Source of the DNA: Desulfallas thermosapovorans DSM 6562
GTDB taxonomy: Bacteria; Bacillota; Desulfotomaculia; Desulfotomaculales; Desulfallaceae
NCBI RefSeq assembly: GCF_008124625.1
Contig: NZ_VNHM01000021.1
Span: forward strand, 1-40,840
Length of the DNA stretch: 40,840 bases
Reading direction: 5' to 3'
Shown: piece by piece, positions 1-25,029 of the stretch
Numbering within the stretch: the stretch's first letter is position 1
How the letters are laid out: each line of letters starts with the position of its first letter
Made by a program: the position numbers and the translations under genes
The notes under the pieces: generated by a model
The model's input: only the letters and a program-made list of their open reading frames with translations
The model's database searches: none
Told to the model about the DNA's origin: nothing

Positions 1-1149
1 TGGCAACACTCCGCCATTGTACTCATTCTCTTTCTCGGGATTTCCCAAATAACTCCTTGCCAAGCCGACTATTGCCTTTTCAAGAAGATAATCCGTTTTT
101 ATGACACGGTGATGATATATAACATACTTATAAAGTAGCCATCTACGATTAAAAAAGTCCTCAACAGTACTTAAGGTTCTAATATCTGGGCAAAAAAGAA
201 AATGACCATTCATTATAATAAGCCTCATGGATCTAATCAATCTGTCATATTCAATACGTCCATAATTAAATCCGGAGTTTTCCAAATCCCTGGTCACATA
301 ATCAAGCCGGTCGCAATCTATAGACCCGTCAATAATGCGGTGAATATCTTCAAAAAGCGAACTTTCTTCGGTAAAAATATAAGTAACAAATTTGCTTACC
401 AACCAGTAAAATAATTGTACCTGTGCTTCATCCCTTTGCTCAGGTCCATTACAAATTACAGATTCAGTCAAACGCTCCGCAATTCTATATCCTATTTCCT
501 CGTGTAAATGGGCATTATTCTCAAAAAATTTTTTTAGTGAATTTTTAAAGTATGTTCTTCTCTCGTTTAAATCGACGTCAGGCATGTCTTTTACATCTTT
601 CCATATCTCTTTTAACGCATTCTCAGATATGTGGCTAAAAGGAGGATGCCCAACATCATGCAGTAATGCTGCAAGGCGAATTGCTTGATAAATTAAAATG
701 TAGGAAAAAAGGTGCTTATCGTTAATAACCTTTGGAGTATTTAATTGGTAAATTGGTTCACGATCATATATTATCCTTATGTTTCTATAGTCCTGCATCA
801 AATCTACAAAGCTGTCACCCAGACTTAAACGCAACGTTCTATTAAAATCATTATCATTACCTAATTTTTCAATTTCATCGTTAATACTATCTAAAAACAT
901 ATCCCTAACTTCATTATCCGCATTCAGCAGGCTATTATAAAAAATTAACCCGCCTAAATGCATCGTTCCCAGGGAATGTACAAATCGTTTAGTTTGATTG
1001 GATGGATATGTAAGATAAACAGTAGAATTCTGCAAAATGTTATGTAAACGGTTAAAAGCTTGCGTAGAAATAATTTGTTTCTCTAGATAACTAATTTGGA
1101 TTGAGCCATGCAGTGAATCTGCAACCTGAATAATCTTTTGGTTTACCAT
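1..1149 (-). CDS. HD-domain phosphohydrolase (COG1078/SAMHD1-dGTPase-like), 3' end outside window
   Basis: The minus strand is open from an ATG at 1149 to the window edge (383 codons seen), so the C-terminus is missing. A GGAGG Shine-Dalgarno about 8 bases upstream supports this start. Visible HD-superfamily motifs are RFVHSLGTMHL (around residues 56-66), which supplies the first metal-binding His, and LLHDVGHPPFSH (HD at about residues 164-165). A later acidic stretch, DGSIDCDRLDYVTRD, is typical of COG1078 proteins, which resemble dGTP triphosphohydrolases and SAMHD1. The likely activity is metal-dependent hydrolysis of dNTPs or another nucleotide phosphate; this is inferred from the family. 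The gene is AT-rich and sits just downstream of the bacillosamine gene remnants, in a stretch with restriction-like genes, so a defence role is possible but unproven. Family call is firm, substrate is not. Confidence 0.85.
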   Translation of the reverse strand, partial: MVNQKIIQVADSLHGSIQISYLEKQIISTQAFNRLHNILQNSTVYLTYPSNQTKRFVHSLGTMHLGGLIFYNSLLNADNEVRDMFLDSINDEIEKLGNDNDFNRTLRLSLGDSFVDLMQDYRNIRIIYDREPIYQLNTPKVINDKHLFSYILIYQAIRLAALLHDVGHPPFSHISENALKEIWKDVKDMPDVDLNERRTYFKNSLKKFFENNAHLHEEIGYRIAERLTESVICNGPEQRDEAQVQLFYWLVSKFVTYIFTEESSLFEDIHRIIDGSIDCDRLDYVTRDLENSGFNYGRIEYDRLIRSMRLIIMNGHFLFCPDIRTLSTVEDFFNRRWLLYKYVIYHHRVIKTDYLLEKAIVGLARSYLGNPEKENEYNGGVLP

Positions 1150-1418: not shown

Positions 1419-1480
1419 ATAACAATTTATCCGAATAATACAGTTAGTTTAATAAACTTTAAGCCTGACCCCTATTTAAT
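1419..1480 (+). repeat. Dispersed repeat, copy A (62 bp)
   Basis: A 62-bp block nearly identical to 1954-2015 (one clear mismatch, C/T, in the AACAAYTTATCC part). The shared core AATAAACTTTAAGCCTGACC recurs at 5189-5227 and, reversed, near 25000. Read on the minus strand, the copy begins ATTAAATAG and ends the truncated aminotransferase frame. It looks like a small mobile or REP/MITE-like unit. No transposase is adjacent, so its class is unknown. Confidence 0.85.
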
Positions 1481-1882
1481 TGCAATGGTTTCAGCGGTTA
1501 TATTCTGGCTTACAGGGTCTACATCGGCCATCACCGGAGTGGCTCCCCGCATTACGGCGCAAGTGGCTGAAGCAATGAAGGTACGGCTGGTTACAATAAC
1601 TTCATCACCGGGGCCTATGCCCAGGGCATAAAGGGCCAGCTCCAAGGCCACAGTTCCGTTGGCCAGGGCCACGGCATACCGGCAGCCGGTAAAGGCGGCA
1701 AACTCTCTTTCAAATTCCCGCCCCTCTTCCCCGGTCCAGTAGTTCACCTTGCCGGATTTTAGAACGTCACCGGCCGCTGTAATCTCACCAGCGGCAAAAT
1801 ATGGCCAGGGGGCAAAGGGCATTGCACGCACGGGCATTCCCCCGTCAATGGCAAGTTTATTCAATATGTAATCACTCCACAA
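1472..1882 (-). pseudogene. pglE: Truncated DegT/DnrJ/EryC1/StrS aminotransferase (PglE-like), N-terminal third only
   Basis: The frame encodes only about 130-136 residues of a PLP-dependent sugar aminotransferase family that normally runs to about 370-400. Recognisable parts are LAIDGGMPVR near the start, the substrate-loop region NYWTGEEGREFE, and the cofactor-binding region ALANGTVALELALYALGIGPGDEVIV. It stops at VDPVSQNITAETIAIK, well before the catalytic lysine, so it cannot be active. The last codons and the TAG stop lie in repeat copy A. The true start may be TTG at 1864, which has a GGAG site about 9 bases upstream, rather than ATG at 1882. It follows pglD-like and pglC-like genes, the usual company of the UDP-bacillosamine 4-aminotransferase. 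The truncation may reflect repeat-mediated deletion of the rest of the gene. Confidence 0.88.
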
Positions 1883-1953
1883 TTTTTTACTTAAAAAATT
1901 ATTAATGAATCACATAGATCGTGAATTTTTCTGGAGATATTAACCAAGGTCCA

Positions 1954-2015
1954 ATAACAACTTATCCGAATAATACAGTTAGTTTAATAAACTTTAAGCC
2001 TGACCCCTATTTAAT
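1954..2015 (+). repeat. Dispersed repeat, copy B (62 bp)
   Basis: Near-identical to 1419-1480 and in the same orientation, so the pair are direct repeats 535 bp apart bracketing the truncated aminotransferase. On the minus strand its first nine bases, ATTAAATAG, end the acetyltransferase gene, exactly as copy A ends the aminotransferase frame. Confidence 0.85.
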
Positions 2016-2648
2016 CGGTTTGGCCGGAACGCCCACCGCAGTGCAACGGGGCGGTATATCCCGAACCACTGCTGCACCGGCGCCAATTGTGGACCACTCA
2101 CCGATGTTAATTCCTTGGATTATTGAGGAATTAGTACCAATATTACATCCTGTATTTAAAACAACATTCCCGGAAACATTTACACCTGGTAGCAATGTTG
2201 AATAATCGTTCATTATGACATCATGCCCAATAGTACAATTCAAGTTAATAATTATATGGCTCCCTAAGCTAATATTTACAGTTAGAATATTACCGGCACA
2301 AATTATATTCCCAACACCCATTTCCACATGGCGAGACATCATCACAGAAGGGTGAATCAAATTCACAAACTTATATCCCCACTCTACAGCCTTTTTTACC
2401 AGGTTCATTTTGCTTCCGGGGTTACCCACTGCACACACGGTATAAACGGGTTCATTGATACGCCGGTTATAAAAAAAATCAAAGTCGCCCAATACGGGAA
2501 AACCGTTTAAAACCTTACCGTGATTGGCAACATTTTCATCAATAAAACCGAGCAATTCCCATTCTTCATTTACAGCATTTATATCCTCAACGAGCCAGGC
2601 AACTTCCCGGGCAAAACCACCGGCGCCGATTATAACCAGCTTTTTCAA
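2007..2648 (-). CDS. pglD: NeuD/PglD-family sugar O/N-acyltransferase
   Basis: 213 residues. The N-terminus has a Rossmann-like sugar-binding start, LVIIGAGGFAREVAW, and the C-terminal half is a left-handed parallel beta-helix of hexapeptide repeats (for example GVGNIICAGNILTVNISLG and SVVLNTGCNIGTNSSIIQG-like turns), ending VGVPAKPIK. Family members acetylate amino or hydroxyl groups of nucleotide-sugars with acetyl-CoA. PglD makes UDP-N,N'-diacetylbacillosamine. It starts 12 bases after the pglC-like gene, implying co-transcription, and precedes the pglE-like remnant. The length is normal, but the last codons (IK and stop) are contributed by repeat copy B, so a short native tail may have been lost. 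Substrate is inferred from neighbours. Confidence 0.85.
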   Translation of the reverse strand: MKKLVIIGAGGFAREVAWLVEDINAVNEEWELLGFIDENVANHGKVLNGFPVLGDFDFFYNRRINEPVYTVCAVGNPGSKMNLVKKAVEWGYKFVNLIHPSVMMSRHVEMGVGNIICAGNILTVNISLGSHIIINLNCTIGHDVIMNDYSTLLPGVNVSGNVVLNTGCNIGTNSSIIQGINIGEWSTIGAGAAVVRDIPPRCTAVGVPAKPIK

Positions 2649-2660
2649 ATAGTATCACCT

Positions 2661-3284
2661 TCAAGCCCCATATTGACGCTGCTCTTGCCCTTTAAATTCC
2701 GGCATGGTAGCATGCCCCTGGGCACTTATTCCTTCGCGTTTAATCGTTTTTAATAATGTAAGCCATAGTATCTTTATATCCATCCGTAACCCCCAATTAT
2801 CCACATACCAAATATCCAGTTTAAATCGTTCTTCCCAGCTAACAGCATTACGCCCGTTAACCTGCGCCCACCCGGTTATTCCGGGTTTTACCTCGTGGCG
2901 GCGGGCCTGCTCCGGTGTATACCGATCGAGGTACTCCATTAATAGAGGTCGCGGCCCCACAAGGCTCATATCCCCCTTTAACACGTTCCACAACTCCGGC
3001 AGCTCGTCCAAACTGGTGGCACGTAAAAAACGCCCCAAACGAGTTAAGCGCTGCTCATCCGGCAATGGGTTACCCTGCCCGTCACGCTCGTCTTTCATGG
3101 TTCTAAATTTATACATGGTAAAGGGTTTGCCATGCAAACCGGGGCGCACCTGCCGGAAAATTACAGGGGTTCCCATATTCAAACGAATTAGGATAGCCAC
3201 TATAGCCAGGATGGGAAATATAACAATCAAACCAATTAAGGAAATCAAAAAATCCATTGTTCTTTTAATTGTATACATACGCAT
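2661..3284 (-). CDS. pglC: Initiating sugar-phosphate transferase (PglC-like, bacterial sugar transferase family)
   Basis: 207 residues. One hydrophobic segment near the N-terminus (about residues 10-32) is followed by the family hallmarks FRQVRPGLHGKPFTMYKFRTM, the catalytic SLDELPELWNVLKGDMSLVG region, VGPRPLL, and KPGITGWAQVNGRN. These enzymes move a sugar-1-phosphate from UDP-sugar to undecaprenyl phosphate at the inner membrane face, starting polysaccharide or glycan assembly. The short form without extra N-terminal TM helices matches PglC (diNAcBac-1-P transferase) more than WbaP. It is the first gene of the pglC-pglD-(pglE) run. The stretch ahead of the ATG at 3284 is only modestly purine-rich. 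The exact sugar is an inference. Confidence 0.88.
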   Translation of the reverse strand: MRMYTIKRTMDFLISLIGLIVIFPILAIVAILIRLNMGTPVIFRQVRPGLHGKPFTMYKFRTMKDERDGQGNPLPDEQRLTRLGRFLRATSLDELPELWNVLKGDMSLVGPRPLLMEYLDRYTPEQARRHEVKPGITGWAQVNGRNAVSWEERFKLDIWYVDNWGLRMDIKILWLTLLKTIKREGISAQGHATMPEFKGQEQRQYGA

Positions 3285-3374
3285 ACCTCTTTACCCTTTA
3301 CTTGTATAAAGGTCAATATCAAGCCACCATATATTTTAAACAGGCGGCTTTTCAGCATGGCAACTTATCTCGAT

Positions 3375-5051
3375 TTACAACCGCCAAACCTGCTTCAACG
3401 TATCTAAAAGCTTCTGCTGCCGCTGCTTAACCACATCCTGCGTCCACTCTTCTTCCATCAACACCTGGGTAGTCAACGCAAAGGGTGAAGTCCCTTTTCG
3501 TGCAAAATATTCATTTTTCTTACGCTCAAACTCAAAATTGCGCGCCTGGCTATTCTTGCTGCGGGATAACAAAACCAGGTTCCCCAACCGGTGTGTCCAC
3601 TGATCCCGGTCGCCTTCGGCAGGAAACCACTCCAGCCACTTGCTACCCTGCGGCGGGTTTTGGGGCAACACGTGCTCCACTGAAATTACCCGGTAATTAT
3701 AAACAGCTTCCCCACTGGATAACGCGGCGTCCAAGCGCAGTAGAACCAGCAGGCGAACTTTAACTTGACGGTAGATATCCCCGTCAAGGGCTTCGATAAC
3801 CAAACGTCGTTCTTCAGCAGTCAGTTGCAGCGGAGAAGTATCCGTGTATAGATCTTCCCCTGCCTCTATGGCCTTTAGCAACGCTCCGTAACGATCAATG
3901 CGCTGGTTTATATAGGTCCTGGTAATCATCATTCCAGCCGCCAGGCGCTCCAAATCGCGGAAAAAATGAACCAATTTTTCCGGCTGGTTGTTATTCCGAA
4001 CCAGGAACAAGATAGCCGGTGGTATCCAGTCTGTATTATCGATGCGCCCGAGCCAACCGAGATACCTGTTTACCTCGCCGGCCAAGGCCGGGCTGGAATA
4101 ATTAGCGTATAAAATATCATTATAAGCATCAGCCATCGGTAAAAGAACCCGGTCCACCAACTGCCGTGGTTCCTCAGTCGCGCACACCGCTTCCCGAAAC
4201 TCTTTAAGAACGGTAGCCCGAGGCTTTGTTTTACGGTAAATCATTCGGATGTAGGCAAAAAGGTCCTTAAAAGCCTCCCGCCCCAGTTGTTCCTCAGCTT
4301 CCTCCCATTTACGGGCATATTCCGCTTGCTGCCCCTCGGGAATCTGACCGATAATCTCGGCTTTGAGGATATCTGCATGGGACAGATCCATACCCCGGTC
4401 GTTTAAAACAGAAAAAATCCGGTAAGCCGAGTCTATATCCGGCGTCCAAACCACCACCAGAAAACATCTATGTAACACATACTGAGCCAGTCGCTGCCGT
4501 TTCGCCTCCGGTAGTTCTTGCAAACGCGAACGGAATAATAATGCGTTGTCCCTGAAATTAATCTGGCTGTCCGTAAGGGAACCATTCAATTGTTTCAACT
4601 CTTCGATACCGCCACGGGATTGAATGTATTTTTCAAAAAAATATTGGTCCCGGGCGCGCACCGTCAAGCGATAACGATCCGGCGTATCCAGCAAAGAGCT
4701 GCCCTTTTCCACCAGAAACCTTTCCAGGTCACCGGCAACCTTTGTATCGGCCGTCAGTTCACGCAATACCGACAATAAGATTGTAAAAGTTATAAGCCTC
4801 TGCTGGCCATCCACAACCTGGGCTTCAGGATCTTTCCCCTTGATGAGCACAATACTGCCCAAAAAGTATGGATCCAGCTCTCGCACAGGTTCATCACTTT
4901 CACCCAAAGCAGCCACTAGATCATCGAATAACTCCCCGGCTTGTTCAGTAGTCCAGGCGTAGGGGCGTTGGTAGTAAGGTATGGAAAAAGCAAACCAATC
5001 GCTGAATACTTCTTTAAGGGGAAACTGTTTCCCTTCGATATCCGCAGACAT
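3375..5051 (-). CDS. DUF262/DUF1524 (GmrSD-like) nuclease, probable anti-phage restriction protein
   Basis: 558 residues. The N-terminal DUF262 (ParB/Srx-like NTPase) domain shows IPYYQRPYAW at about 24-33 and the signature DGQQR at 81-85. The C-terminal DUF1524 HNH-type nuclease shows EHVLPQ at about 459-464, then RLGNLVLLSRSKNSQARN. This two-domain order is that of GmrSD-type IV modification-dependent restriction enzymes, which use NTP and cut DNA bearing modified bases, and of related phage-defence proteins. The length is normal and all key motifs are present, so it looks intact. It is a single gene inserted between the polysaccharide genes pglC and a GT4 gene, with no methylase partner. 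A degraded piece of a second DUF262 gene lies at 5916-5955. Confidence 0.85.
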   Translation of the reverse strand: MSADIEGKQFPLKEVFSDWFAFSIPYYQRPYAWTTEQAGELFDDLVAALGESDEPVRELDPYFLGSIVLIKGKDPEAQVVDGQQRLITFTILLSVLRELTADTKVAGDLERFLVEKGSSLLDTPDRYRLTVRARDQYFFEKYIQSRGGIEELKQLNGSLTDSQINFRDNALLFRSRLQELPEAKRQRLAQYVLHRCFLVVVWTPDIDSAYRIFSVLNDRGMDLSHADILKAEIIGQIPEGQQAEYARKWEEAEEQLGREAFKDLFAYIRMIYRKTKPRATVLKEFREAVCATEEPRQLVDRVLLPMADAYNDILYANYSSPALAGEVNRYLGWLGRIDNTDWIPPAILFLVRNNNQPEKLVHFFRDLERLAAGMMITRTYINQRIDRYGALLKAIEAGEDLYTDTSPLQLTAEERRLVIEALDGDIYRQVKVRLLVLLRLDAALSSGEAVYNYRVISVEHVLPQNPPQGSKWLEWFPAEGDRDQWTHRLGNLVLLSRSKNSQARNFEFERKKNEYFARKGTSPFALTTQVLMEEEWTQDVVKQRQQKLLDTLKQVWRL

Positions 5052-5188
5052 AACCGTGTTTTCACCTGCCCTTTTCCAGACATTTATTTAGTTAACCAAT
5101 CACCGATCTTTTTCTTTAAAATGACAACAGGTAGGAACAAATTGAATTAAAACGGGAAAGTTTACTGGTCTTCTTTATGTAATACTTG

Positions 5189-5227
5189 ATAATGTAGTTA
5201 CTTTAATAAACTTTAAGCCTGACCCCT
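5189..5227 (+). repeat. Dispersed repeat, copy C (39 bp)
   Basis: Shares the core TTTAATAAACTTTAAGCC plus TGACCCCT with copies A and B but lacks the ATTTAAT end. The minus-strand YwgA-like gene reads into it, so its last residues (GVRLKVY) and stop codon come from the repeat. Confidence 0.8.
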
Positions 5228-5790
5228 GACAACCTACCTACATACCCCTTTGCTTCCAGCTCAGCTACAGCGGACTCTATTTCCAACACAGAAAAATGGG
5301 GTTTTATGCCATGTATCTCCTGAATGAACTCTCGCCCGGACAGGTTTCTTTTTTCCCTGTGGGCGGCGCGGTCAATATAAACAATGGTGGAGCGCAATTC
5401 CAGGTCCCGGGTTTTCATGTAACCGAACTCATCCAACAATTTGTTTATGTGTTCCTGGTGGACTGCTAAAAATTCTTCTGCTTTGCTTTTTATGACATCT
5501 TTTCCCGGTGCCGGTGAAATACTATAGCCGTTGACCCGGGAATCAAAGTCCACCGACACAGCACCTAAAGCGTTCATATAATCCAGGTCGTCCGTCAATT
5601 CGCTGCAATAGGGGCCGTGGATATACAGTGAATATTGATAGCCGCAAGGAACTTTATAGACCGCCCCCAGTAAATAAACCAGTTTTTGCAATGCCGTTTT
5701 TCCAAACCAGTATCCTTTCCCCTGCATTTTTTCAGCTAAAGCCACTATTAGGGCATAACGGTGCCAGGGGATATCAAGCGTAAGTCTCAT
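5203..5790 (-). CDS. YwgA-like protein of unknown function
   Basis: 195 residues, soluble, no signal peptide. The pattern LQKLVYLLGAVYKVPCG followed by YSLYIHGPYCSELTDDLDYM is the signature I associate with the YwgA/Panacea-like (GepA/SocA-related) group of small proteins often beside defence or HD-domain genes. In Bacillus, an HD-domain gene (ywfO) is a neighbour of ywgA, and an HD-domain remnant lies directly upstream here (5805-5912), so the ancestral arrangement may have been a pair. The ATG at 5790 has only a weak site (GGTGGGGG further back). The C-terminal residues after YVGRL are encoded by repeat copy C, so the native end is altered. Function unknown; association with defence is inferred from context. 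Confidence 0.6.
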   Translation of the reverse strand: MRLTLDIPWHRYALIVALAEKMQGKGYWFGKTALQKLVYLLGAVYKVPCGYQYSLYIHGPYCSELTDDLDYMNALGAVSVDFDSRVNGYSISPAPGKDVIKSKAEEFLAVHQEHINKLLDEFGYMKTRDLELRSTIVYIDRAAHREKRNLSGREFIQEIHGIKPHFSVLEIESAVAELEAKGYVGRLSGVRLKVY

Positions 5791-5804
5791 TTTTTACCCC
5801 CACC

Positions 5805-5912
5805 TTAAAATTTCTCCGGGTTAACAGGCATCAATTCCTCCCCGGCATGGGAAAAAGGGCCATGCCCGACATCGTGCAAAAGGCTTGCCAAGCGCACTAT
5901 TACGATAAACTT
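5805..5912 (-). pseudogene. Remnant of a second HD-domain phosphohydrolase
   Basis: A short open stretch reads [20 protein letters not shown] and ends with LMPVNPEKF and a TAA. This is the catalytic HD block of a COG1078/YwfO-type protein with nothing recognisable before or after. It differs from the HD gene at 1-1149 ([14 protein letters not shown] against HDVGHPPFSHISEN), so it is not a simple copy of it. It sits just upstream of the YwgA-like gene. Confidence 0.75.
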
Positions 5913-5915
5913 TTA

Positions 5916-5955
5916 GGTAACACATGCTCCACTTAAATAAACCGTTATAAACAGG
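5916..5955 (-). pseudogene. Scrap of a second DUF262/HNH gene
   Basis: About 40 bases resemble the HNH-coding part of the DUF262 gene: TAACACATGCTCCACTTAAA here against CAACACGTGCTCCACTGAAA at about 3668-3687, then both run to TATAAACAG. Translated in broken frames it gives VYN, then VEHVLP, matching VYNYRVISVEHVLP in the intact gene. It abuts the HD remnant. Confidence 0.55.
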
Positions 5956-5957
5956 CA

Positions 5958-7190
5958 TTATTGCAATTTCACATACTTTTCGCCAGCAGCGTTATATAAA
6001 CTCCCCCATTCTTTGTTATTCTCCGCAACGCCGCATTCTACCAAGACTTTCAAATAAAAATCCTTGAGCTCTTGCCAAATATATTCTGATTGAAAGTGTT
6101 CTTCAACATATTTACGTCCTGCGTTGCCTAACCTTTTTCTTAAGTTTTCATCCTTTAAAACCCAAATTAGATTATCAGCCAATGCTTTAACATCACCAAT
6201 GGGGCTTAGTAAACCTGTTTCCCCGTGAATTACCGCATCCACAACTCCGGTTGCTAGTGTTCCTACAACAGGCACCCCGGCTGCTGCAGCCTCTAATGCA
6301 ACGTTACCTAAACCTTCCCTGTGCGTTGGAAATGCCAAGCAATCCATTATACGGTAATAAGGTGCTACATCGTTAACATATCCGGTTTGTATGATATTTT
6401 TATCCGACTTTATTTCCTCTCGAATATTTTGCGGAACAGGATCGCCTTCTTCATACCTTCCAATCAAAATTAATCTTACATCCGGAAAAGCCGATTTCAC
6501 AACTTTATAAGCTTTGATTAATTCAATAATTCCTTTATCTTTTGTAAGCCGCCCAACAAAACCAATAACAGGCACATCTTCAGGGATGCCAAGTTGACAA
6601 CGTATTTTTTCGTGTTTTAAAGCCCCTTCATTCATGGAAGCAAATCGGGAAACATCTATTCCATTACTACTTCCTTTGCCAATAACATGGGCTTTTTTAG
6701 GGTCTAAAAGTCCAAGTGACACAGCCTGCCTACAAAGGCTGTTACTTACAGGCAACACACGGTGTGCGCAAAATACAGCTACCTTTTCACAAATGTACAA
6801 CACGTTTTTCTTAAACCCTTTCGCAGTTTCCAAACGTAAGCCGCGAAGGGTGTATATTCTACAGGGAACCCTTGCCAGATAGGCAGCGATTCCCCCAAGC
6901 AATCCTGCTTTGGGTGTACCCACATTTACAATAACGGGTTTAATCCGCCTCATTAATAGAAACAATCTCCATAATGCAACGAAATCTTTTAAAGGTGATA
7001 TTTCCCTCTCCATCGGTACAGCATATACATTTACCTTCTCTCTATTTTTAGCGATCTGAAGCTTTTCGCCAGGCGATGAAATTACGTAAACATCAAAACC
7101 TGCTTCCCTGAGATAAGCCAACTGCCCGCGCATCAAACCCACACTGCTAGCCGCAGTTACAATATGAATAACTTTGGGTCTTCTTATCAT
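5958..7190 (-). CDS. GT4-family glycosyltransferase
   Basis: 410 residues from ATG at 7190. A longer frame opens at 7265, but the start at 7190 has AAGGGG about 9 bases upstream and avoids overlap with the preceding gene. N-terminal acceptor domain: KVIHIVTAASSVGLMRGQL. C-terminal donor domain: IGFVGRLTKDKGIIELIKAY and the EX7E motif in HREGLGNVALEAAAAGVPVV. GT4 enzymes are retaining transferases that use nucleotide-sugars at the cytoplasmic membrane face. The N-terminus resembles PglA/CapM-type enzymes that add the second sugar to Und-PP-linked bacillosamine, which fits the pglC-D-E genes nearby. The specific sugar is an inference. It lies about 50 bases after the tviB frame and is probably in the same operon. 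Confidence 0.85.
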   Translation of the reverse strand: MIRRPKVIHIVTAASSVGLMRGQLAYLREAGFDVYVISSPGEKLQIAKNREKVNVYAVPMEREISPLKDFVALWRLFLLMRRIKPVIVNVGTPKAGLLGGIAAYLARVPCRIYTLRGLRLETAKGFKKNVLYICEKVAVFCAHRVLPVSNSLCRQAVSLGLLDPKKAHVIGKGSSNGIDVSRFASMNEGALKHEKIRCQLGIPEDVPVIGFVGRLTKDKGIIELIKAYKVVKSAFPDVRLILIGRYEEGDPVPQNIREEIKSDKNIIQTGYVNDVAPYYRIMDCLAFPTHREGLGNVALEAAAAGVPVVGTLATGVVDAVIHGETGLLSPIGDVKALADNLIWVLKDENLRKRLGNAGRKYVEEHFQSEYIWQELKDFYLKVLVECGVAENNKEWGSLYNAAGEKYVKLQ

Positions 7191-7240
7191 CTTCTGCATC
7201 CCCTTACCAAATATAGCGCATAAACAACTGATACCAAATT

Positions 7241-8544
7241 CTAAGCCTTTACCACATTCGCCCACTTACCGGAAATACAGTTTCTTGTATCAACAATTAA
7301 CTTTGCTTTTTGCCGCAGCCAATCATAGTCAATACATGAATGGTCTGTAGTAATGACCACGCAATCATAATCAGCTAAGTTTTCCTCCGTTAATTCCACC
7401 GAAGTCATTTCCCATCCGGGGTAAGCCCGGTGGCCACCACTACGGGGTACATGCGGGTCATGGTAAGATACTACCGCGCCACGTTCGTTAAGTAACTGGA
7501 TAATTTTCAAAGCCGGTGATTCCCTTTGATCGTCAACATCTTTTTTATAGGCAATACCCATAATTAAAATCCGGGCGTTTTTCATAGCAATGCCCCGGTC
7601 ATTAAGTGCCCGCGCCGTCTTTTCCACCACGTAATAGGGCATGCTTGTATTAATTTCACCGGCCAGTTCAATAAAACGGGTGGCGAAATCATATTCACGC
7701 GCTTTCCAGGACAGATAAAAGGGATCAATGGGTATGCAATGCCCCCCTAACCCCGGACCGGGTAAAAAGGTTGAAACCCAAAGGGTTTGGTACTGGATGC
7801 CGCTATAACCTCCCAAACGTCAATGTCCATCTTGTCAAAAAGTATTTTCATTTCATTGATCATGGCAATATTAACAGAACGGTAAATATTTTCCAAAAGC
7901 TTGGTGGCTTCCGCTGTCCGGGTTGATGAAACAGGTACAACCTTGACTACCTTTCCATACAATGTCTTGGCCACCTGTAAGCATGCATCTGTTGTACCTC
8001 CTACAACTTTTGGTATAACTTCAGTTTTAAATTTGGGGTTACCGGGATCTTCACGTTCGGGCGAATAAGCTAAAAAGAAATCTTTTCCCACAGTTAAACC
8101 ACTTTTCAATAATACAGGCAAGATGACTTCGTCAGTTGTGCCGGGATAAGTGGTACTTTCCAAAACAATAAGTTGCCCCGACCGCAGGCACGCTGAAATG
8201 GCGGAAACAGCATTATTTATGTAAGTGAGGTCCGGTTCCCTTTGAATCGTTAGTGGCGTAGGTAAACAGATTAATATGGCATCCGGTTCCCCCAACCTTC
8301 GAAAATCGGCTGTCGCTTCCAAAAAAGCATTGTTTCTGGCACTTGTCACTTCTTCCGAGCTAATATGTTTTATATACGATTGCCCGGAGTTTAGCAGATC
8401 GACTTTGCTCTCATCGTTGTCAAAACCAATAACTTTAAACCCAGCCCGGCTGAATACCAGGGCCAGGGGCAAACCCACATAGCCCATACCAATGACACCG
8501 ACAACACATGATTTATCTTCAATCTTTTGTATAAAATTTTGCAT
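7241..8544 (-). pseudogene. tviB: UDP-N-acetylglucosamine 6-dehydrogenase (TviB/WbpA type), frameshifted
   Basis: Two overlapping frames together make one UDP-glucose/GDP-mannose dehydrogenase family protein of about 434 residues. The first (8544 to 7747) has the NAD site VIGMGYVGLPLALVFSRAGF and runs to KPFGFQPFYP. The second supplies PGLGGHCIPIDPFYLSWKAR, which includes the catalytic Cys, and the C-terminal UDP-binding domain. The expected junction is FYPGPGLGGHC; around 7757-7764 the sequence CCCGGTCCGGGG is one G short of the codons needed, shifting the frame. As written the enzyme lacks its nucleophile. This type oxidises UDP-GlcNAc to UDP-GlcNAcA. It is followed upstream in the operon by the tviC partner. 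A one-base assembly error in a G/C run is a real alternative. Confidence 0.88.
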
Positions 8545-14959: not shown

Positions 14960-15880
14960 TCAAAATTCCTGCTTCTTTTCCAAAAAAATCTCATTCATTA
15001 AACAACAATATATGCCATTTGTCTCTTTGACCTGATCCGCTTTAGCGGCCAGCTCCAGTACAGCTTCCGGTGCTGTTTTGGCATAACGCCGGGTGGTGGA
15101 AATGTTTTCATGGCCCAGTACTTCCTGAACCTTGTCAATTGCCACACCTTTTTGCAGTAGTTGGGTACCTACTGTATGTCGGCAACGATGGGGATAAAAA
15201 TGCACGCCAATTTGTTTTTTGCACTTGTAAGACCAATTCCTGTATTGAATTGGTGTAACATCAATTAGAGATGCCTCACCAGTCCTTTCCTTTTGTATCT
15301 CCGCCAATTTCCTGGCCACTTCTGCATCCATCACCGGTACATATCTTTCCTTATTTCCTTTGCCATGCCTAACCCGAATGATATAGCCACCGTTATCTAA
15401 TCTAATTAGATCGTTACATTTCATAGCCACAACTTCACTTGTGCGCATTCCGGTGGCCAGCATAGTGCGAAATCCTAGAGCAATTGTTTCCGGGATTGTA
15501 CTTAACCAGTTATCCAGCAACTCAAGCTCGGCGGTAGTCATGAATTTTGGCAGAGCTTGTCCTTCCTTTACACGCAGTCTTCTGGTGTTTATGGGGTTGC
15601 CGGCAATTTTGCCTTCTTCAATCAGAAAATCATAAAAACCCTTAAGTACTGATACAGCTTTATTCACTGACCGGGGTTTTAGTCCCGCTTCCACCAGGGA
15701 ATTTCTGTACAGCCTGGCGTGGGTGGGATTCAGGGCAAGAAAATTAATATTATTTTTATCGGCAAAGTTTACAAACCTGCTCAAATTATATGCGTATCCT
15801 TTTACAGTTACCTCCGAATTACCACGCATTTTGAAATCAATCAGATATTCTTTTATTAGTTCCCTTAACTTGGATTGCAT
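14960..15880 (-). CDS. Tyrosine recombinase/integrase 1
   Basis: 306 residues from ATG at 15880; a longer frame from 15940 would overlap hicA and lacks the typical start. N-terminal SAM-like core-binding domain with a TVKGYAYNLSRF helix. Catalytic domain shows the full set: Arg in TMLATGMRTSEVVA, Lys in RVRHGKGNKERYVP, HxxR in PHRCRHTVGTQLLQ, His in LGHENISTTRRY, and the nucleophile Tyr in RRYAKTAP. These enzymes cut and rejoin DNA at specific sites through a 3'-phosphotyrosine. It is a clear paralogue of the recombinase at 17191-18072, in the same orientation. The target site is unknown; no att-like duplication was identified. Confidence 0.9.
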   Translation of the reverse strand: MQSKLRELIKEYLIDFKMRGNSEVTVKGYAYNLSRFVNFADKNNINFLALNPTHARLYRNSLVEAGLKPRSVNKAVSVLKGFYDFLIEEGKIAGNPINTRRLRVKEGQALPKFMTTAELELLDNWLSTIPETIALGFRTMLATGMRTSEVVAMKCNDLIRLDNGGYIIRVRHGKGNKERYVPVMDAEVARKLAEIQKERTGEASLIDVTPIQYRNWSYKCKKQIGVHFYPHRCRHTVGTQLLQKGVAIDKVQEVLGHENISTTRRYAKTAPEAVLELAAKADQVKETNGIYCCLMNEIFLEKKQEF

Positions 15881-15905
15881 TTTTAATTTAACCCTTTTGG
15901 GATGA

Positions 15906-16166
15906 CTATGTATTATTCTCGTTATAAAACAGCTCGACAATTACATCTTGTTTGCTTTTCCCCATATACTGAGCAATGTCGGTAATAACAGCACTCAATG
16001 TGCCCACCCTCAGAGGGTTGTGGGCAGGCACAGTAATATGGTGCTTTCTCTTTTTTATGTTGGATGTCAGGCGAATATGGCTTCCTGTTTGTCTAGTAAC
16101 AGAATACCCATATTTCTTCAAAATAACAGTAAACTGCTTGGCATCAATATCACGAGGAATTCTCAT
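15906..16166 (-). CDS. hicA: HicA-type mRNA interferase toxin
   Basis: 86 residues. Family marks are the fold start FTVILKKYGYSVTRQTGSHI, where the His of GSHIRL is the catalytic residue, and HHITVPAHNPLRVGTLSAVI. HicA proteins are dsRBD-fold ribonucleases that cut mRNA when their HicB partner is lost. The start ATG overlaps the hicB TGA (ATGA), so translation is coupled and antitoxin is made first. The length is typical and no key residue is missing. It sits between the two recombinase genes. Confidence 0.88.
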   Translation of the reverse strand: MRIPRDIDAKQFTVILKKYGYSVTRQTGSHIRLTSNIKKRKHHITVPAHNPLRVGTLSAVITDIAQYMGKSKQDVIVELFYNENNT

Positions 16167-16372
16167 ATTGCCAAAATCTCTTCTTTTATGAAATGAATTT
16201 TTACCATATCCGGCATTTCTTGATCATCAAAATGACATCTTACCGCGTCTTTTATCTCTTCTTTTATTGCATCCAAAGTATCACTTTCCGAGAATATAGA
16301 ATACCCCAGAGCCCTAGCAATATAACCACCTTCTGGAGCTTCTTTAACAATAAAGATTATCTCGTTTTTCAT
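16163..16372 (-). CDS. hicB: HicB-like antitoxin
   Basis: 69 residues from ATG at 16372, which has AAGGTG about 8 bases upstream; a longer frame from 16435 is less likely. The pattern EIIFIVKEAPEGGYIARALG followed by SESDTLDAIKEEIKDAVRCH is the HicB-like partial RNase H fold. There is no obvious C-terminal HTH or RHH DNA-binding domain, so operon control may fall to another protein such as the adjacent regulator. It overlaps hicA by four bases. Confidence 0.85.
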   Translation of the reverse strand: MKNEIIFIVKEAPEGGYIARALGYSIFSESDTLDAIKEEIKDAVRCHFDDQEMPDMVKIHFIKEEILAI

Positions 16373-16457
16373 TTTCTCACACCTTATATTCGAACTGCCC
16401 ATGTTTTCCTTTATATATATTTTGCCTCGCGGCATCTAAATATAAGCATTTCATACC

Positions 16458-16480
16458 AAACATTCAACCATTGAACGTTT
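16458..16480. promoter_or_regulatory. Imperfect palindrome between the regulator and hicBA (possible operator)
   Basis: AAACATTCAAC, one base, ATTGAACGTTT: 11-base arms with two mismatches. It shares the core TTCAAYCATTGAA with the perfect palindrome at 17081-17107 on the other side of the regulator gene. It overlaps the regulator stop codon and lies about 90 bases ahead of hicB. Confidence 0.55.
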
Positions 16481-17009
16481 AACTCATTTTCTCAAGTATA
16501 TTTACAACATTATATTTGCCATCCATATGATCCACCCGGGCGTCATCCCAGGTGATCACCAGAGCGTTTTCCAAAAGATCCTCCGGTAAATCGTTAATCC
16601 CTTCGGATATTCTGTAATTTACCCCCAGGTCGTGCGCGGCAATTTTTAATACGGCCAGCACATCGCCGGGGCTTCCGCAGAGTATGATTTCCTTTACGGG
16701 GCCATAAGTAACCTGGTGTTCGGTTATAACTTGTTCCATCGCCCGGCTTATTTTGATGATCTGCTTGTATGCTGCTTTAAGATACTGATAAGCCAGCCGG
16801 GTTTTTTCAGCCATGCCCCTGGGGGTTAGAATATAACGCAGCGTCCTGCCGTTGACCCTTTCCAGCTTGACCAGCCCTTTATGGACCATTTTTTTCAGCA
16901 GTAGGTTTACGGTGCCCACCGAAAGGCCGGTCCTGCTGGCGATTTGACGCTGGGATAAATCTTTGTTTTTCTCTATATGACTTAATATTTCATATTCATG
17001 AATCGACAT
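16479..17009 (-). CDS. MarR-like winged-helix regulator with a C-terminal Rossmann-like domain
   Basis: 176 residues. The N-terminal winged helix is clear: EYEILSHIEKNKDLSQRQIA, then the recognition helix SVGTVNLLLKKMVHKGLVKL and a wing GRTLRYILTPRGM. After a helical linker (residues about 65-100), the C-terminal part VKEIILCGSPGDVLAVLKIA looks like a Rossmann-type strand-loop-helix with an altered glycine loop. Similar regulators occur in polysaccharide loci, where they may control transcription or sense a nucleotide-sugar; this is inferred. The RBS AGGTG is about 5 bases from ATG and is directly preceded by a (TA)9 tract. Related palindromes lie on both sides, suggesting autoregulation and control of hicBA. 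Confidence 0.8.
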   Translation of the reverse strand: MSIHEYEILSHIEKNKDLSQRQIASRTGLSVGTVNLLLKKMVHKGLVKLERVNGRTLRYILTPRGMAEKTRLAYQYLKAAYKQIIKISRAMEQVITEHQVTYGPVKEIILCGSPGDVLAVLKIAAHDLGVNYRISEGINDLPEDLLENALVITWDDARVDHMDGKYNVVNILEKMS

Positions 17010-17017
17010 TTTTCACC

Positions 17018-17036
17018 TATATATATATATATATAT
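17018..17036. repeat. (TA)9 dinucleotide tract beside the regulator RBS
   Basis: Nine TA units plus one T, directly upstream of the AGGTG ribosome site of the regulator. Slippage in such a tract would change the spacing between promoter and RBS. It could also include the -10 region. Confidence 0.85.
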
Positions 17037-17043
17037 TACCGAA

Positions 17044-17078
17044 CCGCACCCGAACACTTTTACCTGGTTAGGGTGCGG
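17044..17078. other. GC-rich hairpin CCGCACCC/GGGTGCGG
   Basis: Perfect 8-base arms (17044-17051 and 17071-17078) with a 19-base loop. No T-run follows on either strand, so it is not a normal terminator. It sits between the (TA)9 tract and the long palindrome, in the presumed leader or promoter of the regulator gene. Confidence 0.7.
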
Positions 17079-17080
17079 GC

Positions 17081-17107
17081 TAAAATGTTCAATCATTGAA
17101 CATTTTA
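17081..17107. promoter_or_regulatory. Perfect 27-bp palindrome upstream of the regulator (probable operator)
   Basis: Arms TAAAATGTTCAAT and ATTGAACATTTTA around a single C. It lies about 75-100 bases upstream of the regulator start and between it and recombinase 2. The same core reappears, less perfectly, at 16458-16480. Confidence 0.75.
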
Positions 17108-17190
17108 ACTCAGGACAAAAATTTTGTCAATATAGGCAGGTTATTCCCTTAATATTAAAAAATGATATATCCCACATTTTATCACTCAAA

Positions 17191-18072
17191 TTACCGCAAC
17201 CAGAACCTGTACAATGCCCGGCGTTCCTTTATTTCATCCACTTTAGCCGCCAGTTCATAGATAGCTTCCGGGGCGGTTTTAGCGTAGCGCCGGGTGGTGG
17301 AAATGTCGGCGTGCCCCAGCACGTCCTGCACTTTATCTATAAAGACTCCCCTTTGCAATAGTTGGGTGCCCGTGGTATGCCGGCACCGGTGGGAGTGGAA
17401 GGCCACTCCGGTTTCCAGGCGGCATTTGCGGGCCCACCATTTAAAGGCATGACTGGTAACCCCGAATAAAGGTTCATCGTCCCGGCGGTCCCCCACGAAG
17501 TCAATTAATTCATTTACCACCCCGGCATCAATAACGGGCACATACCGCTCCTTGTCCCCTTTACCATGCCGTACCCGGAAGATATAGCCGCCGTTGTCCA
17601 GCACAATGATATCGTTAGGGGTAACGGAGGATACTTCACTCACCCTCATGCCGGTGGCCAGCATGGTGCGATAGCCAAGGGCCATATGGCGGGGGATGGT
17701 TTTCAGCCACCGGTTGAATATCTTCAGTTCTTCCGGCGTCATGAAGCGGGGCAGGGATTGGCCTTCCTTGACCCGCAAACGGCGGGTGATAATGGGATTG
17801 CCCTGCACCTCCTGCTCATCCACCAGAAAGTCATAAAAACTTTTCAAGGCGGCCAGCACCGCGTTGATGGTGCGGGGTTTTAATCCCTGCTGCACCAGGT
17901 GGTTGCGAAACTGTTTGACTTGCTTCAAAGTCAGGGTGGTAAAGTCCAGCCCGCTACTTTCCACAAAGGATATGAATTTATCTAAATGGTAGCTGTAATT
18001 GCTTAATGTATGCGCCGAGCTGCCTTTCATTTTCAGTTCGGTTAGGTAACTTTTCACCTGCAGGCGGAGCAT
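17191..18072 (-). CDS. Tyrosine recombinase/integrase 2
   Basis: 293 residues. Same architecture as recombinase 1: N-terminal core-binding domain with THLSNY-like helix HTLSNYSYHLDKFISF, then catalytic Arg in TMLATGMRVSEVSS, Lys in RVRHGKGDKERYVP, HxxR in SHRCRHTTGTQLLQ, His in LGHADISTTRRY and nucleophile Tyr in RRYAKTAP. All catalytic residues are present. The two recombinases agree closely through long segments such as LRVKEGQ-LP-FMT and STTRRYAKTAPEA, so they are diverged duplicates. It lies just downstream of the HEPN/MNT pair (18 bases). It may act with recombinase 1 on shared sites. Confidence 0.9.
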   Translation of the reverse strand: MLRLQVKSYLTELKMKGSSAHTLSNYSYHLDKFISFVESSGLDFTTLTLKQVKQFRNHLVQQGLKPRTINAVLAALKSFYDFLVDEQEVQGNPIITRRLRVKEGQSLPRFMTPEELKIFNRWLKTIPRHMALGYRTMLATGMRVSEVSSVTPNDIIVLDNGGYIFRVRHGKGDKERYVPVIDAGVVNELIDFVGDRRDDEPLFGVTSHAFKWWARKCRLETGVAFHSHRCRHTTGTQLLQRGVFIDKVQDVLGHADISTTRRYAKTAPEAIYELAAKVDEIKERRALYRFWLR

Positions 18073-18090
18073 AGTTTACCTCACGTGCTA

Positions 18091-18567
18091 CTATTCTTGT
18101 ATCTCAGTCAACAGATCCAGAAAGGTTTCAAGGTTATCCTTAAACTCACTAAAGGTTGGCACCAAATCCCGAACCAGGGGTTCCATCCTGGCCCATTCAA
18201 GTTCATACCCGTATAAGTTGCGAAAACGATGTCTAAAGCCCAGGTATTGCTGCAACTCCCCCAACAAATGATCATTGATAACCGCAGGTCTTTTGGAGGG
18301 AATGTCCAGCGTCATTTGCTCCAGCAGGTCACGGTGCCACCCCTGTGATTTAGGCACCACTTGATCAATTTCACGGGCTATGCTAATGAAGATTTTCTCT
18401 ATTCCGGAGTAAAAATCGTGCAGTATTGAGGCATAAGCCCTGAGTTTAACGCTTTTGAGCTTTTGTTCTTTGAGTTTTGCCAGGGTTTTTAACTCGTCCT
18501 GCAGCTTTTCCAATTGGTCTAACTCTTTCCGAATGCGTGCTTCCAGCAAAATTAAGTTTGGGATCAT
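18091..18567 (-). CDS. hepT: HepT-like HEPN ribonuclease toxin
   Basis: 158 residues, all-helical, no signal peptide. The conserved end RHRFRNLYGYELEWARM is the HEPN motif region; the catalytic Arg and the downstream polar-x-Tyr pattern are recognisable although it is not a strict RX4-6HXY. LRAYASILHDFYSGIEKIFI matches the first helices of HepT-like proteins. These act as RNases that are silenced when the paired MNT protein AMPylates them. Its ATG overlaps the end of the MNT gene by four bases, the normal antitoxin-first arrangement. Confidence 0.8.
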   Translation of the reverse strand: MIPNLILLEARIRKELDQLEKLQDELKTLAKLKEQKLKSVKLRAYASILHDFYSGIEKIFISIAREIDQVVPKSQGWHRDLLEQMTLDIPSKRPAVINDHLLGELQQYLGFRHRFRNLYGYELEWARMEPLVRDLVPTFSEFKDNLETFLDLLTEIQE

Positions 18568-18929
18568 AACTCCAACCCCTTTTGGAGAATATAATCCCTC
18601 ACTTCAGGGTCGATTCTTTCCAGCTCAATCAGGTCAAAGTCAAACGGGTGTAGTATATCCATGACCTCTGCGTATACCCGCCAGAAGTTCTGTTCACTAC
18701 TCAAGTTTAATGTGGCAATGTCTATATCGGAATGCTCCATAAATTTGTCCTTTTCCAGCAAGGAACCAAATAAGAACACCCGGCACTGATAAGCCTGTTT
18801 TAAATGCTCAGCGGCCTTGCGGGCCAGGGTAATAGCTTTTTTGTAGCGGGCCTCCAGTTCCTGCTCCCTCTTCTTTTTTCGTTCAAGCCACCCGGCGCGG
18901 TAGCCGGCCAGTTGTTTTGGTGTTAACAC
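18564..18929 (-). CDS. mntA: MNT-type nucleotidyltransferase antitoxin
   Basis: About 121 residues from GTG at 18929 (GGGGTGG about 5 bases upstream). A longer frame from 18971 is possible, but its first residues lack family character. The nucleotidyltransferase signature is intact: FLFGSLLEKDKFMEHSDIDI, the GSx10DxD metal-binding motif, with a later acidic residue in FDFDLIELE. MntA proteins AMPylate the tyrosine of HepT toxins. A TGGTATAAT extended -10 on the minus strand (TATAAT at 18953-18948) sits about 19 bases ahead of the GTG, so the pair probably has its own promoter. Confidence 0.85.
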   Translation of the reverse strand: MLTPKQLAGYRAGWLERKKKREQELEARYKKAITLARKAAEHLKQAYQCRVFLFGSLLEKDKFMEHSDIDIATLNLSSEQNFWRVYAEVMDILHPFDFDLIELERIDPEVRDYILQKGLEL

Positions 18930-19109
18930 AATAACCACCCCGGCATTATTATACCAAACTACCGCAGCCAAAAACTGTATGACTTCCTATACAACTCGAA
19001 AGAATTTTTTTATTTAGCGCCGGTAAAGACCCTCCATTTTACACACTGGTTTCGTATTTAATATTGTAAGCACACCATGTATAGTTTTATATAATCTGAC
19101 GGGACAGGT

Positions 19110-24998: not shown

Positions 24999-25029
24999 CG
25001 GGGTCAGGCTTAAAGTTTGTTAAAGTAAC
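24999..25029 (-). repeat. Dispersed repeat, copy D (reverse orientation)
   Basis: GGGGTCAGGCTTAAAGTTTG on the + strand is the reverse complement of the core in copies A-C, with differences (GTTAAAGTAAC). It lies between a terminator and the membrane-protein gene and is not attached to a gene end, unlike the other three. Confidence 0.75.

What the first reader, a model, noticed from the sequence alone, without database searches (positions are those of the whole stretch)
3375..5955. Defence-type genes inserted inside a polysaccharide locus, with scraps of the same two gene families
Between the GT4 gene (5958) and pglC (3284) lie an intact DUF262/HNH nuclease, a YwgA-like gene, and degraded pieces of a second HD gene (5805-5912) and a second DUF262 gene (5916-5955). 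An intact but different HD gene lies at 1-1149. HD, DUF262 and YwgA-like families thus appear together in intact and decayed form, suggesting a turnover hot spot or a composite HD/DUF262/YwgA defence module.
Basis: partly seen in the sequence, partly recalled or inferred. Interest (0 to 1): 0.55.

Follow-up and report, generated by a model that had tools for sequence, protein, structure and literature searches.

The report
Broken HD–YwgA pair in glycan locus
Inside a bacterium's surface-sugar gene cluster lies the relic of a two-gene pair (an enzyme resembling the human antiviral protein SAMHD1 plus a partner folded like a toxin's inhibitor) that recurs, often intact, in such clusters of related bacteria and may be an unstudied defence or nucleotide-control device; a separate nuclease-type gene has moved in beside it.

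Summary
In detail: the DUF262 and YwgA genes are open and both scraps are real. The HD scrap keeps 27 codons (5817-5897), 24 identical to an HD protein paired elsewhere with one of the two closest YwgA relatives found. The DUF262 scrap (29/37 nt) was reached by 0 of 260 shuffles. The 'intact' HD gene at 1-1149 is cut by the contig end.

The interpretation splits. HD and YwgA are a true module: HD lies upstream of YwgA in 40/44 phylum cases, and the 33 best HD hits all have YwgA adjacent. The HD partner is SAMHD1/EF1143-like; the YwgA model matches the DarG antitoxin C-terminal domain (Z 15.5). DUF262 is not part of it (1 of 40 loci). The pair is no newcomer: polysaccharide genes flank 15/40 HD-YwgA regions, 2/40 random and 0/40 DUF262 regions; one genome has GT–HD–YwgA–PglC–PglD–DegT.

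So the window shows a decayed HD-YwgA pair at a habitual site, with a GmrSD-type gene between YwgA and PglC, amid repeats and duplications. Most likely YwgA restrains a dNTPase, toxin-antitoxin fashion; function is inferred. YwgA was not found in phage, plasmid or viral collections.

The parts
5203..5790 (-). YwgA-like gene, DarG C-terminal-domain fold, now without its HD partner; natural 3' end replaced by repeat-coded GVRLKVY*
   Evidence: model pLDDT 92.5; 7yk3 Z 15.5; 59% identical to L102 YwgA and 60% to L106
5817..5897 (-). HD scrap: 27 codons around [10 protein letters not shown], remnant of the HD partner gene normally upstream of YwgA
   Evidence: HMM E 2.3e-11; 24/27 identical to L102 HD
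5911..5947 (-). DUF262/HNH scrap (VEHVLP codons) of a second DUF262 gene
   Evidence: 29/37 nt; 0/200 and 0/60 shuffles
3375..5051 (-). Open DUF262+DUF1524 (GmrSD_N + GmrSD_C) gene lying between YwgA and PglC
5189..5227 (-). Copy of a repeat (GGGGTCAGGCTTAAAGTTTATTAAA...) found only in this genus among the genomes searched; it supplies the YwgA stop codon
2661..3284 (-). PglC-type priming sugar transferase (Bac_transf), downstream neighbour of YwgA in L102
   Evidence: 73% identical to L102 PglC
2007..2648 (-). PglD-type acetyltransferase
   Evidence: 31% identical to L102 PglD
1472..1882 (-). Truncated DegT aminotransferase copy, cut at a repeat; with its leader 92-93% identical over about 530 nt to copies on contigs C29 and C32
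1419..1480 (-). Repeat copy at the DegT truncation point
1954..2015 (-). Repeat copy at the PglD 3' end
1..1149 (-). Other HD gene (SAMHD1-like), cut by the contig end; not YwgA's partner
5958..7265 (-). GT4-type glycosyltransferase upstream of the scraps

Best explanation
The stretch is the remains of a two-gene HD-YwgA operon that belonged to a surface-polysaccharide locus, later disturbed. Shown: HD+YwgA is a nearly obligate pair; its HD gene here has shrunk to 27 recognisable codons while YwgA stays open; a DUF262+DUF1524 gene lies between YwgA and PglC, which are neighbours 50 nt apart in L102; a 37-nt scrap of another DUF262 gene lies upstream; repeats mark several junctions and the adjacent HD/DegT segments are duplicated. 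Inferred: the intact pair works as a nucleotide-depletion device under restraint. The HD protein is a SAMHD1/EF1143-like dNTPase (likelihood about 0.85 from family and conserved motif), and YwgA, with the fold of the DarG domain that blocks DarT by mimicking ssDNA, binds and restrains it or sets its trigger (about 0.5), so that phage infection or stress frees the enzyme to drain dNTPs (about 0.4). In the window the device is dead: the enzyme is lost and the presumed restrainer remains. The DUF262 protein is a separate, probably type IV-like restriction nuclease (about 0.6).
For: Pairing: HD near YwgA in 15 of 19 relative loci; HD upstream in 40 of 44 phylum genes and 14 of 16 named loci (three of these 16, L153, L156 and L158, are contigs already counted, leaving 12 of 13); the 33 HD matches with E <= 8.5e-76 all have YwgA within 476 nt. 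Fold: YwgA's profile has one PDB sequence match below E 0.01, DarG 7yk3 (E 5.4e-11); model to 7yk3 Z 15.5 over 166 residues, next row 9.1. HD relatives: 2hek, 2o6i (EF1143), SAMHD1; HD motif invariant in 14 aligned HD proteins. Site: 15/40 versus 2/40 and 0/40, 32 of 33 polysaccharide ORFs on the pair's strand versus 338 of 417 of all ORFs. Order: L102 GT–HD–YwgA–PglC–PglD–DegT. Defence hint: HD–YwgA between BrxC and PglX in L150; DpdA- and helicase-like genes about 1.2 kb downstream in L148.
Against: Neighbours are not clearly enriched in defence models: PADLOC hits at 1e-30 are scattered in both 135 neighbours and 81 control ORFs (the output gives families, not the number of proteins hit). 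No YwgA match in 72,556 plasmid or 50,697 phage records at E 1e-5, nor in viral contigs by pattern scan. B. subtilis ywfO–ywgA looks chromosomal (recalled), and ywfO has been read as nucleotide housekeeping (PMC4993169, passages). The shared fold does not show that YwgA inhibits HD.
Confidence: 0.55

Rival explanations
1. HD–YwgA is a housekeeping nucleotide-pool pair with no defence role; in some lineages it is simply co-transcribed with glycan genes, perhaps tuning nucleotides used in sugar activation.
For: No match in the phage, plasmid and viral sets searched; frequent in polysaccharide operons on the same strand; ywfO read as a clean-up phosphohydrolase.
Against: Patchy: 66 of 299 genomes of the phylum hold a YwgA-like match and 0 of the 6 other genomes of the genus; relatives of 36-44% identity scattered over several phyla; found inside a BREX operon.
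Confidence: 0.3
2. A composite HD/DUF262/YwgA defence system.
For: Two DUF262 traces flank HD–YwgA here; G155 has a dGTPase-like gene, DUF262, a 1504-codon ORF, truncated HD and YwgA in a row. Both families share a genome somewhat more often than chance: 30 of 299, odds ratio 2.2, p 0.004 (own genome and DarG-type hits included).
Against: 1 of 40 HD–YwgA loci has DUF262 within 10 kb; none of 16 named loci shows one by single-sequence search; the G155 DUF262 is not matched by the window's in the same search.
Confidence: 0.05
3. Polysaccharide loci merely collect any mobile or defence gene, so the site says nothing about HD–YwgA.
For: The locus holds other such items: MNT/HepT pair and two tyrosine recombinases, repeats and duplications.
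Against: 0 of 40 regions around DUF262 genes from the same genome sample have these polysaccharide genes, versus 15 of 40 for HD–YwgA (p 6e-6); 32 of 33 co-directional.
Confidence: 0.1
4. The scraps are chance resemblances.
For: Both are short.
Against: HMM E 2.3e-11 and 24/27 identity at the place of the partner gene; DUF262 scrap reached by 0 of 260 shuffles.
Confidence: 0.02

Closest known systems
DarTG toxin-antitoxin system (DarG C-terminal domain)
   Same: YwgA has the fold of DarG's C-terminal domain and is the second gene after an enzyme
   Different: No macrodomain or NADAR domain on YwgA, no DarT; the partner is an HD phosphohydrolase
Clover (CloA dNTPase + CloB nucleotidyltransferase; PMC12265719, abstract and passages seen)
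   Same: HD dNTPase encoded with a dedicated second gene
   Different: Second gene is a DarG-like fold, not a nucleotidyltransferase
B. subtilis ywfO–ywgA / E. faecalis EF1143 (PDB 2o6i, 3irh, 4lrl)
   Same: HD family member; the gene pair itself recalled from B. subtilis, not tested here
   Different: Here set in a polysaccharide locus, with the HD gene lost
GmrSD / type IV restriction (DUF262+DUF1524)
   Same: Both domains in one 558-aa chain
   Different: Substrate unknown; closest PADLOC model is 'Orf5'

Membership tests
HD–YwgA two-gene pair | YwgA-like gene present | tested here: met
HD–YwgA two-gene pair | Intact HD gene directly upstream | tested here: not met
   only 27 codons recognisable in the window; the genome's C4 pair has open frames (L029)
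DarTG | DarG C-terminal domain fold | tested here: met
DarTG | Macrodomain/NADAR domain on the antitoxin | tested here: not met
   195 aa; DarG models match only in their C-terminal half
DarTG | DarT gene next to it | tested here: not met
   no DarT among the window's neighbouring genes; partner is an HD gene in 40/44 relatives
Clover | HD dNTPase | tested here: inconclusive
   relatives match dNTPases by sequence; activity untested; window copy decayed
Clover | CloB nucleotidyltransferase beside the dNTPase | tested here: not met
   neighbour is YwgA
Toxin-antitoxin | Two-gene operon, overlapping or near-overlapping genes | tested here: met
   34 of 40 pairs have stop-to-stop frames -33 to +24 nt apart; transcription itself untested
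Toxin-antitoxin | Toxicity of one, neutralisation by the other | not testable with these tools
   needs expression tests
GmrSD type IV restriction | GmrSD_N and GmrSD_C domains | tested here: met
   both over cut-off
GmrSD type IV restriction | Cleaves modified DNA | not testable with these tools
   no activity data
Composite HD/DUF262/YwgA module | The three neighbour one another across genomes | tested here: not met
   1 of 40 loci

The most novel reading that the evidence does not exclude
HD–YwgA is an uncharacterised two-gene system in which a SAMHD1-like dNTPase is held in check by a free-standing DarG-type domain, possibly by nucleic-acid mimicry at the dNTPase's nucleotide or ssDNA sites, and which surface-polysaccharide operons (phage-receptor loci) carry as a built-in second line of defence or addiction device.
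Probability: 0.28. Interest if true: 0.75.

Novelty: new variant of a known kind. Interest (0 to 1): 0.5.

Why it matters
Bacterial dNTPases that limit phages need a brake; Clover showed one kind. A widespread pair joining a SAMHD1-like enzyme to the fold that neutralises DarT points to a second, testable kind of brake, and its preference for surface-polysaccharide operons (shown for this phylum only) suggests a link between receptor loci and nucleotide-level defence. It also gives a likely role to YwgA, which matches no Pfam family here.

Tried and rejected
Composite three-gene module: rejected on neighbourhood counts, with G155 as the one partial exception. Defence-island enrichment by PADLOC: inconclusive; the control ORFs came from own-genome stretches taken for the repeat and include JetA- and JetC-type genes (Wadjet, name recalled). 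Two of the 137 neighbour ORFs listed were left out of the 135 scanned. Phage or plasmid carriage: no match. Y1/RAYT transposase as source of the repeat: one PF01797 hit in the genome (C9:9453-9788), none of the 40 listed repeat matches near it; not pursued. SocA/Panacea relation of YwgA: below cut-off, for one relative only. The GT upstream in L102 is not an orthologue of the window's GT4. A same-genus PglC locus (G002) shows DegT–PglC–PglD and no YwgA or HD by single-sequence search, with only 57% PglC identity, so it is not a clean empty site. VIA-align rows other than DarG (winged-helix regulators, Z 9.1 and below) are taken as common local similarity. Limits: the 40 HD–YwgA regions hold the best-scoring of 85 non-own matches, G282 (contig edge) and G157 (383-aa DarG-like frame) being skipped; the random regions come from 10 complete genomes of the sample; the 40 DUF262 regions were picked by me from the higher-scoring matches, a number of matches being skipped (many of them near contig ends); the polysaccharide test used 12 window proteins plus the C32 DegT.

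Full report
WHAT IS THERE. All genes concerned lie on the minus strand. Reading in that direction: GT4 gene (7265-5958), a 37-nt DUF262 scrap (5947-5911), an HD scrap (5897-5817), the YwgA-like gene (5790-5203), a repeat copy (5227-5189), the DUF262+DUF1524 gene (5051-3375), PglC (3284-2661), PglD (2648-2007), a repeat, a truncated DegT gene (1882-1472), a repeat, and another HD gene that runs off the contig (1149-1). The DUF262 gene has both GmrSD domains.

THE SCRAPS. A profile built from HD genes that precede YwgA in relatives finds the HD scrap at E 2.3e-11 over 26 residues. The HD protein of L102, whose YwgA is 59% identical to the window's, is identical to the scrap in 24 of 27 positions. 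The scrap sits where the partner gene should be. The DUF262 scrap matches the intact DUF262 gene in 29 of 37 nt around the VEHVLP codons; no shuffle reached its score (0 of 200 and 0 of 60). The stretch was picked by eye beforehand, so this is a post hoc test.

HD AND YWGA ARE A PAIR. Relatives: 15 of 19 loci have HD next to YwgA; of the other four, L038 has a frame that reads like an HD C-terminus (my reading), L041 is at a contig edge, L045 is a whole DarG, and L031 has none. Phylum sample of 299 genomes: 66 have a YwgA-like match, 87 matches in all. In 40 regions read, 40 of 44 YwgA-like genes have an HD frame upstream on the same strand within 1.5 kb, 34 of the 40 at -33 to +24 nt between stop-to-stop frames; three have none (L103, L107 second, L111 second) and one is at a contig edge (L135). 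Sixteen named loci, from Chloroflexi, Desulfobacterales, Goldiibacteriota, Omnitrophota, Nitrospirae, Spirochaetes, Clostridia and others: 14 of 16, the misses being L152 (contig edge) and L156. Three of the 16 (L153, L156, L158) are contigs already met under other numbers, so the fresh count is 12 of 13. In reverse, the 33 best HD matches (E up to 8.5e-76) all have YwgA within 476 nt; below that score HD genes without YwgA appear. The own genome has a second pair with open frames at C4 (L029).

WHAT THE PROTEINS ARE. The HD partner matches 2hek, EF1143 (2o6i) and SAMHD1 in the PDB and keeps the HD motif. The YwgA profile matches DarG 7yk3 at E 5.4e-11; the only other row up to E 1 is a designed protein at 0.25. 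An AlphaFold2 model (mean pLDDT 92.5) matches 7yk3 with Foldseek E 2.4e-4 and Z 15.5, rmsd 3.9, 166 residues. DarG's C-terminal domain is reported to occlude DarT by mimicking ssDNA (passage in PMC11481870; the primary paper was seen only as a reference). Clover shows that a dNTPase defence enzyme can be paired with a restraining protein (PMC12265719, abstract and passages).

THE SITE. Using 12 polysaccharide proteins of the window and the DegT of contig C32 as queries, 15 of 40 HD–YwgA regions have at least one hit and 11 at least two; 40 random regions from ten complete genomes of the sample have 2 and 1; 40 regions around DUF262 genes of the same sample have 0 and 0 (p 3e-4 and 6e-6 for at least one hit). 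Of the polysaccharide ORFs, 32 of 33 are on the pair's strand, against 338 of 417 of all ORFs. The three regions with the closest YwgA relatives (L102 59%, L106 60%, L105 55%) are all among the 15. Of the 16 named loci only 2 have hits, so the excess is shown for the phylum sample only. In L102 the order is UGDH–GT–HD–YwgA–PglC–PglD–DegT, with PglC 73%, PglD 31% and DegT 36% identical to the window's or C32's copies and YwgA and PglC 50 nt apart. The window has the same order with the HD gene reduced and DUF262 between YwgA and PglC; its GT is not the orthologue of L102's. The same-genus genomes G001-G006 have no YwgA match.

DUF262 IS SEPARATE. 93 of 299 genomes have PF03235; 30 have both families (p 0.004), but besides the window only G155 and G021 have them within 10 kb (coordinates compared by eye), and the G021 match is DarG. 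G155 deserves mention against my reading: a dGTPase-like gene, DUF262, a 1504-codon ORF, a truncated HD, YwgA, Bac_transf and an epimerase follow each other, and its YwgA is as close to the window's as L102's.

TURNOVER. The repeat has at least 40 matches in the genome, and its 19-nt core occurs in 7 of 7 genomes of the genus and none of 53 others. The DegT copy in the window is, with its leader, 92-93% identical to copies on C29 and C32; C29's HD copy lacks about 680 nt present in C32.

MECHANISM. Most likely the intact pair is a restrained dNTPase. The fold and pairing are shown; restraint, trigger and phage defence are inferred. The hints for defence are its place between BrxC and PglX in L150, and DpdA- and helicase-like genes about 1.2 kb downstream in L148; absence from the phage, plasmid and viral collections searched and the unclear PADLOC comparison speak against a typical mobile defence cassette. 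In the window the enzyme is gone and the presumed brake remains, the order of loss expected of a toxin-antitoxin pair.

LITERATURE. A search for ywgA or ywfO gave 11 papers, none listed as a study of the pair; searches on DarG/YwgA-like, SAMHD1-type defence, COG1078, Panacea, defence genes in polysaccharide loci and EF1143 showed no paper on HD–YwgA in their listings, several of which were cut to the first 10 to 20 papers. The library holds open-licence papers only.

Noticed in passing
window 1419-1480, 1954-2015, 5189-5227, 25000-25024 and about 40 places in the genome: A repeat (GGGGTCAGGCTTAAAGTTTATTAAAGTAACTG...), found in the 7 genomes of the genus and not in 53 other relatives, sits at gene 3' ends on the sense strand and often supplies the stop codon: 23 of 36 copies follow a 100-codon or longer frame ending within -6 to +21 nt, 2 of 36 in antisense, 28.6% for random insertion of the repeat in silico.
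   Followed up: partly
window 1-1149; L021 (C29) 1-1450; L022 (C32) 1-2641: HD gene, 71-aa gene, repeat and DegT form a duplicated segment at three contig ends; one HD copy has an internal deletion, several DegT copies are broken.
   Followed up: partly
L150 4352-15813: HD–YwgA lies between BrxC and PglX of a BREX-type operon in a deltaproteobacterial MAG.
   Followed up: partly
window 14960-18971: Two tyrosine recombinases and an MNT/HepT-type pair sit inside the same polysaccharide locus.
   Followed up: no
window 7241-8544: The UDP-glucose dehydrogenase gene is split into two overlapping frames (8544-7747 and 7816-7241), a frameshift or a sequence error.
   Followed up: no
L021 (C29) 1633-6290: RelB/ParE-type pair, an AAA_21 ATPase with a DUF4276 protein, and an IrrE-like peptidase whose frame ends in the repeat.
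   Followed up: partly
L023 (C11) 3660-5848: A weak YwgA-like frame precedes, rather than follows, an HD gene, with a repeat copy just upstream.
   Followed up: no
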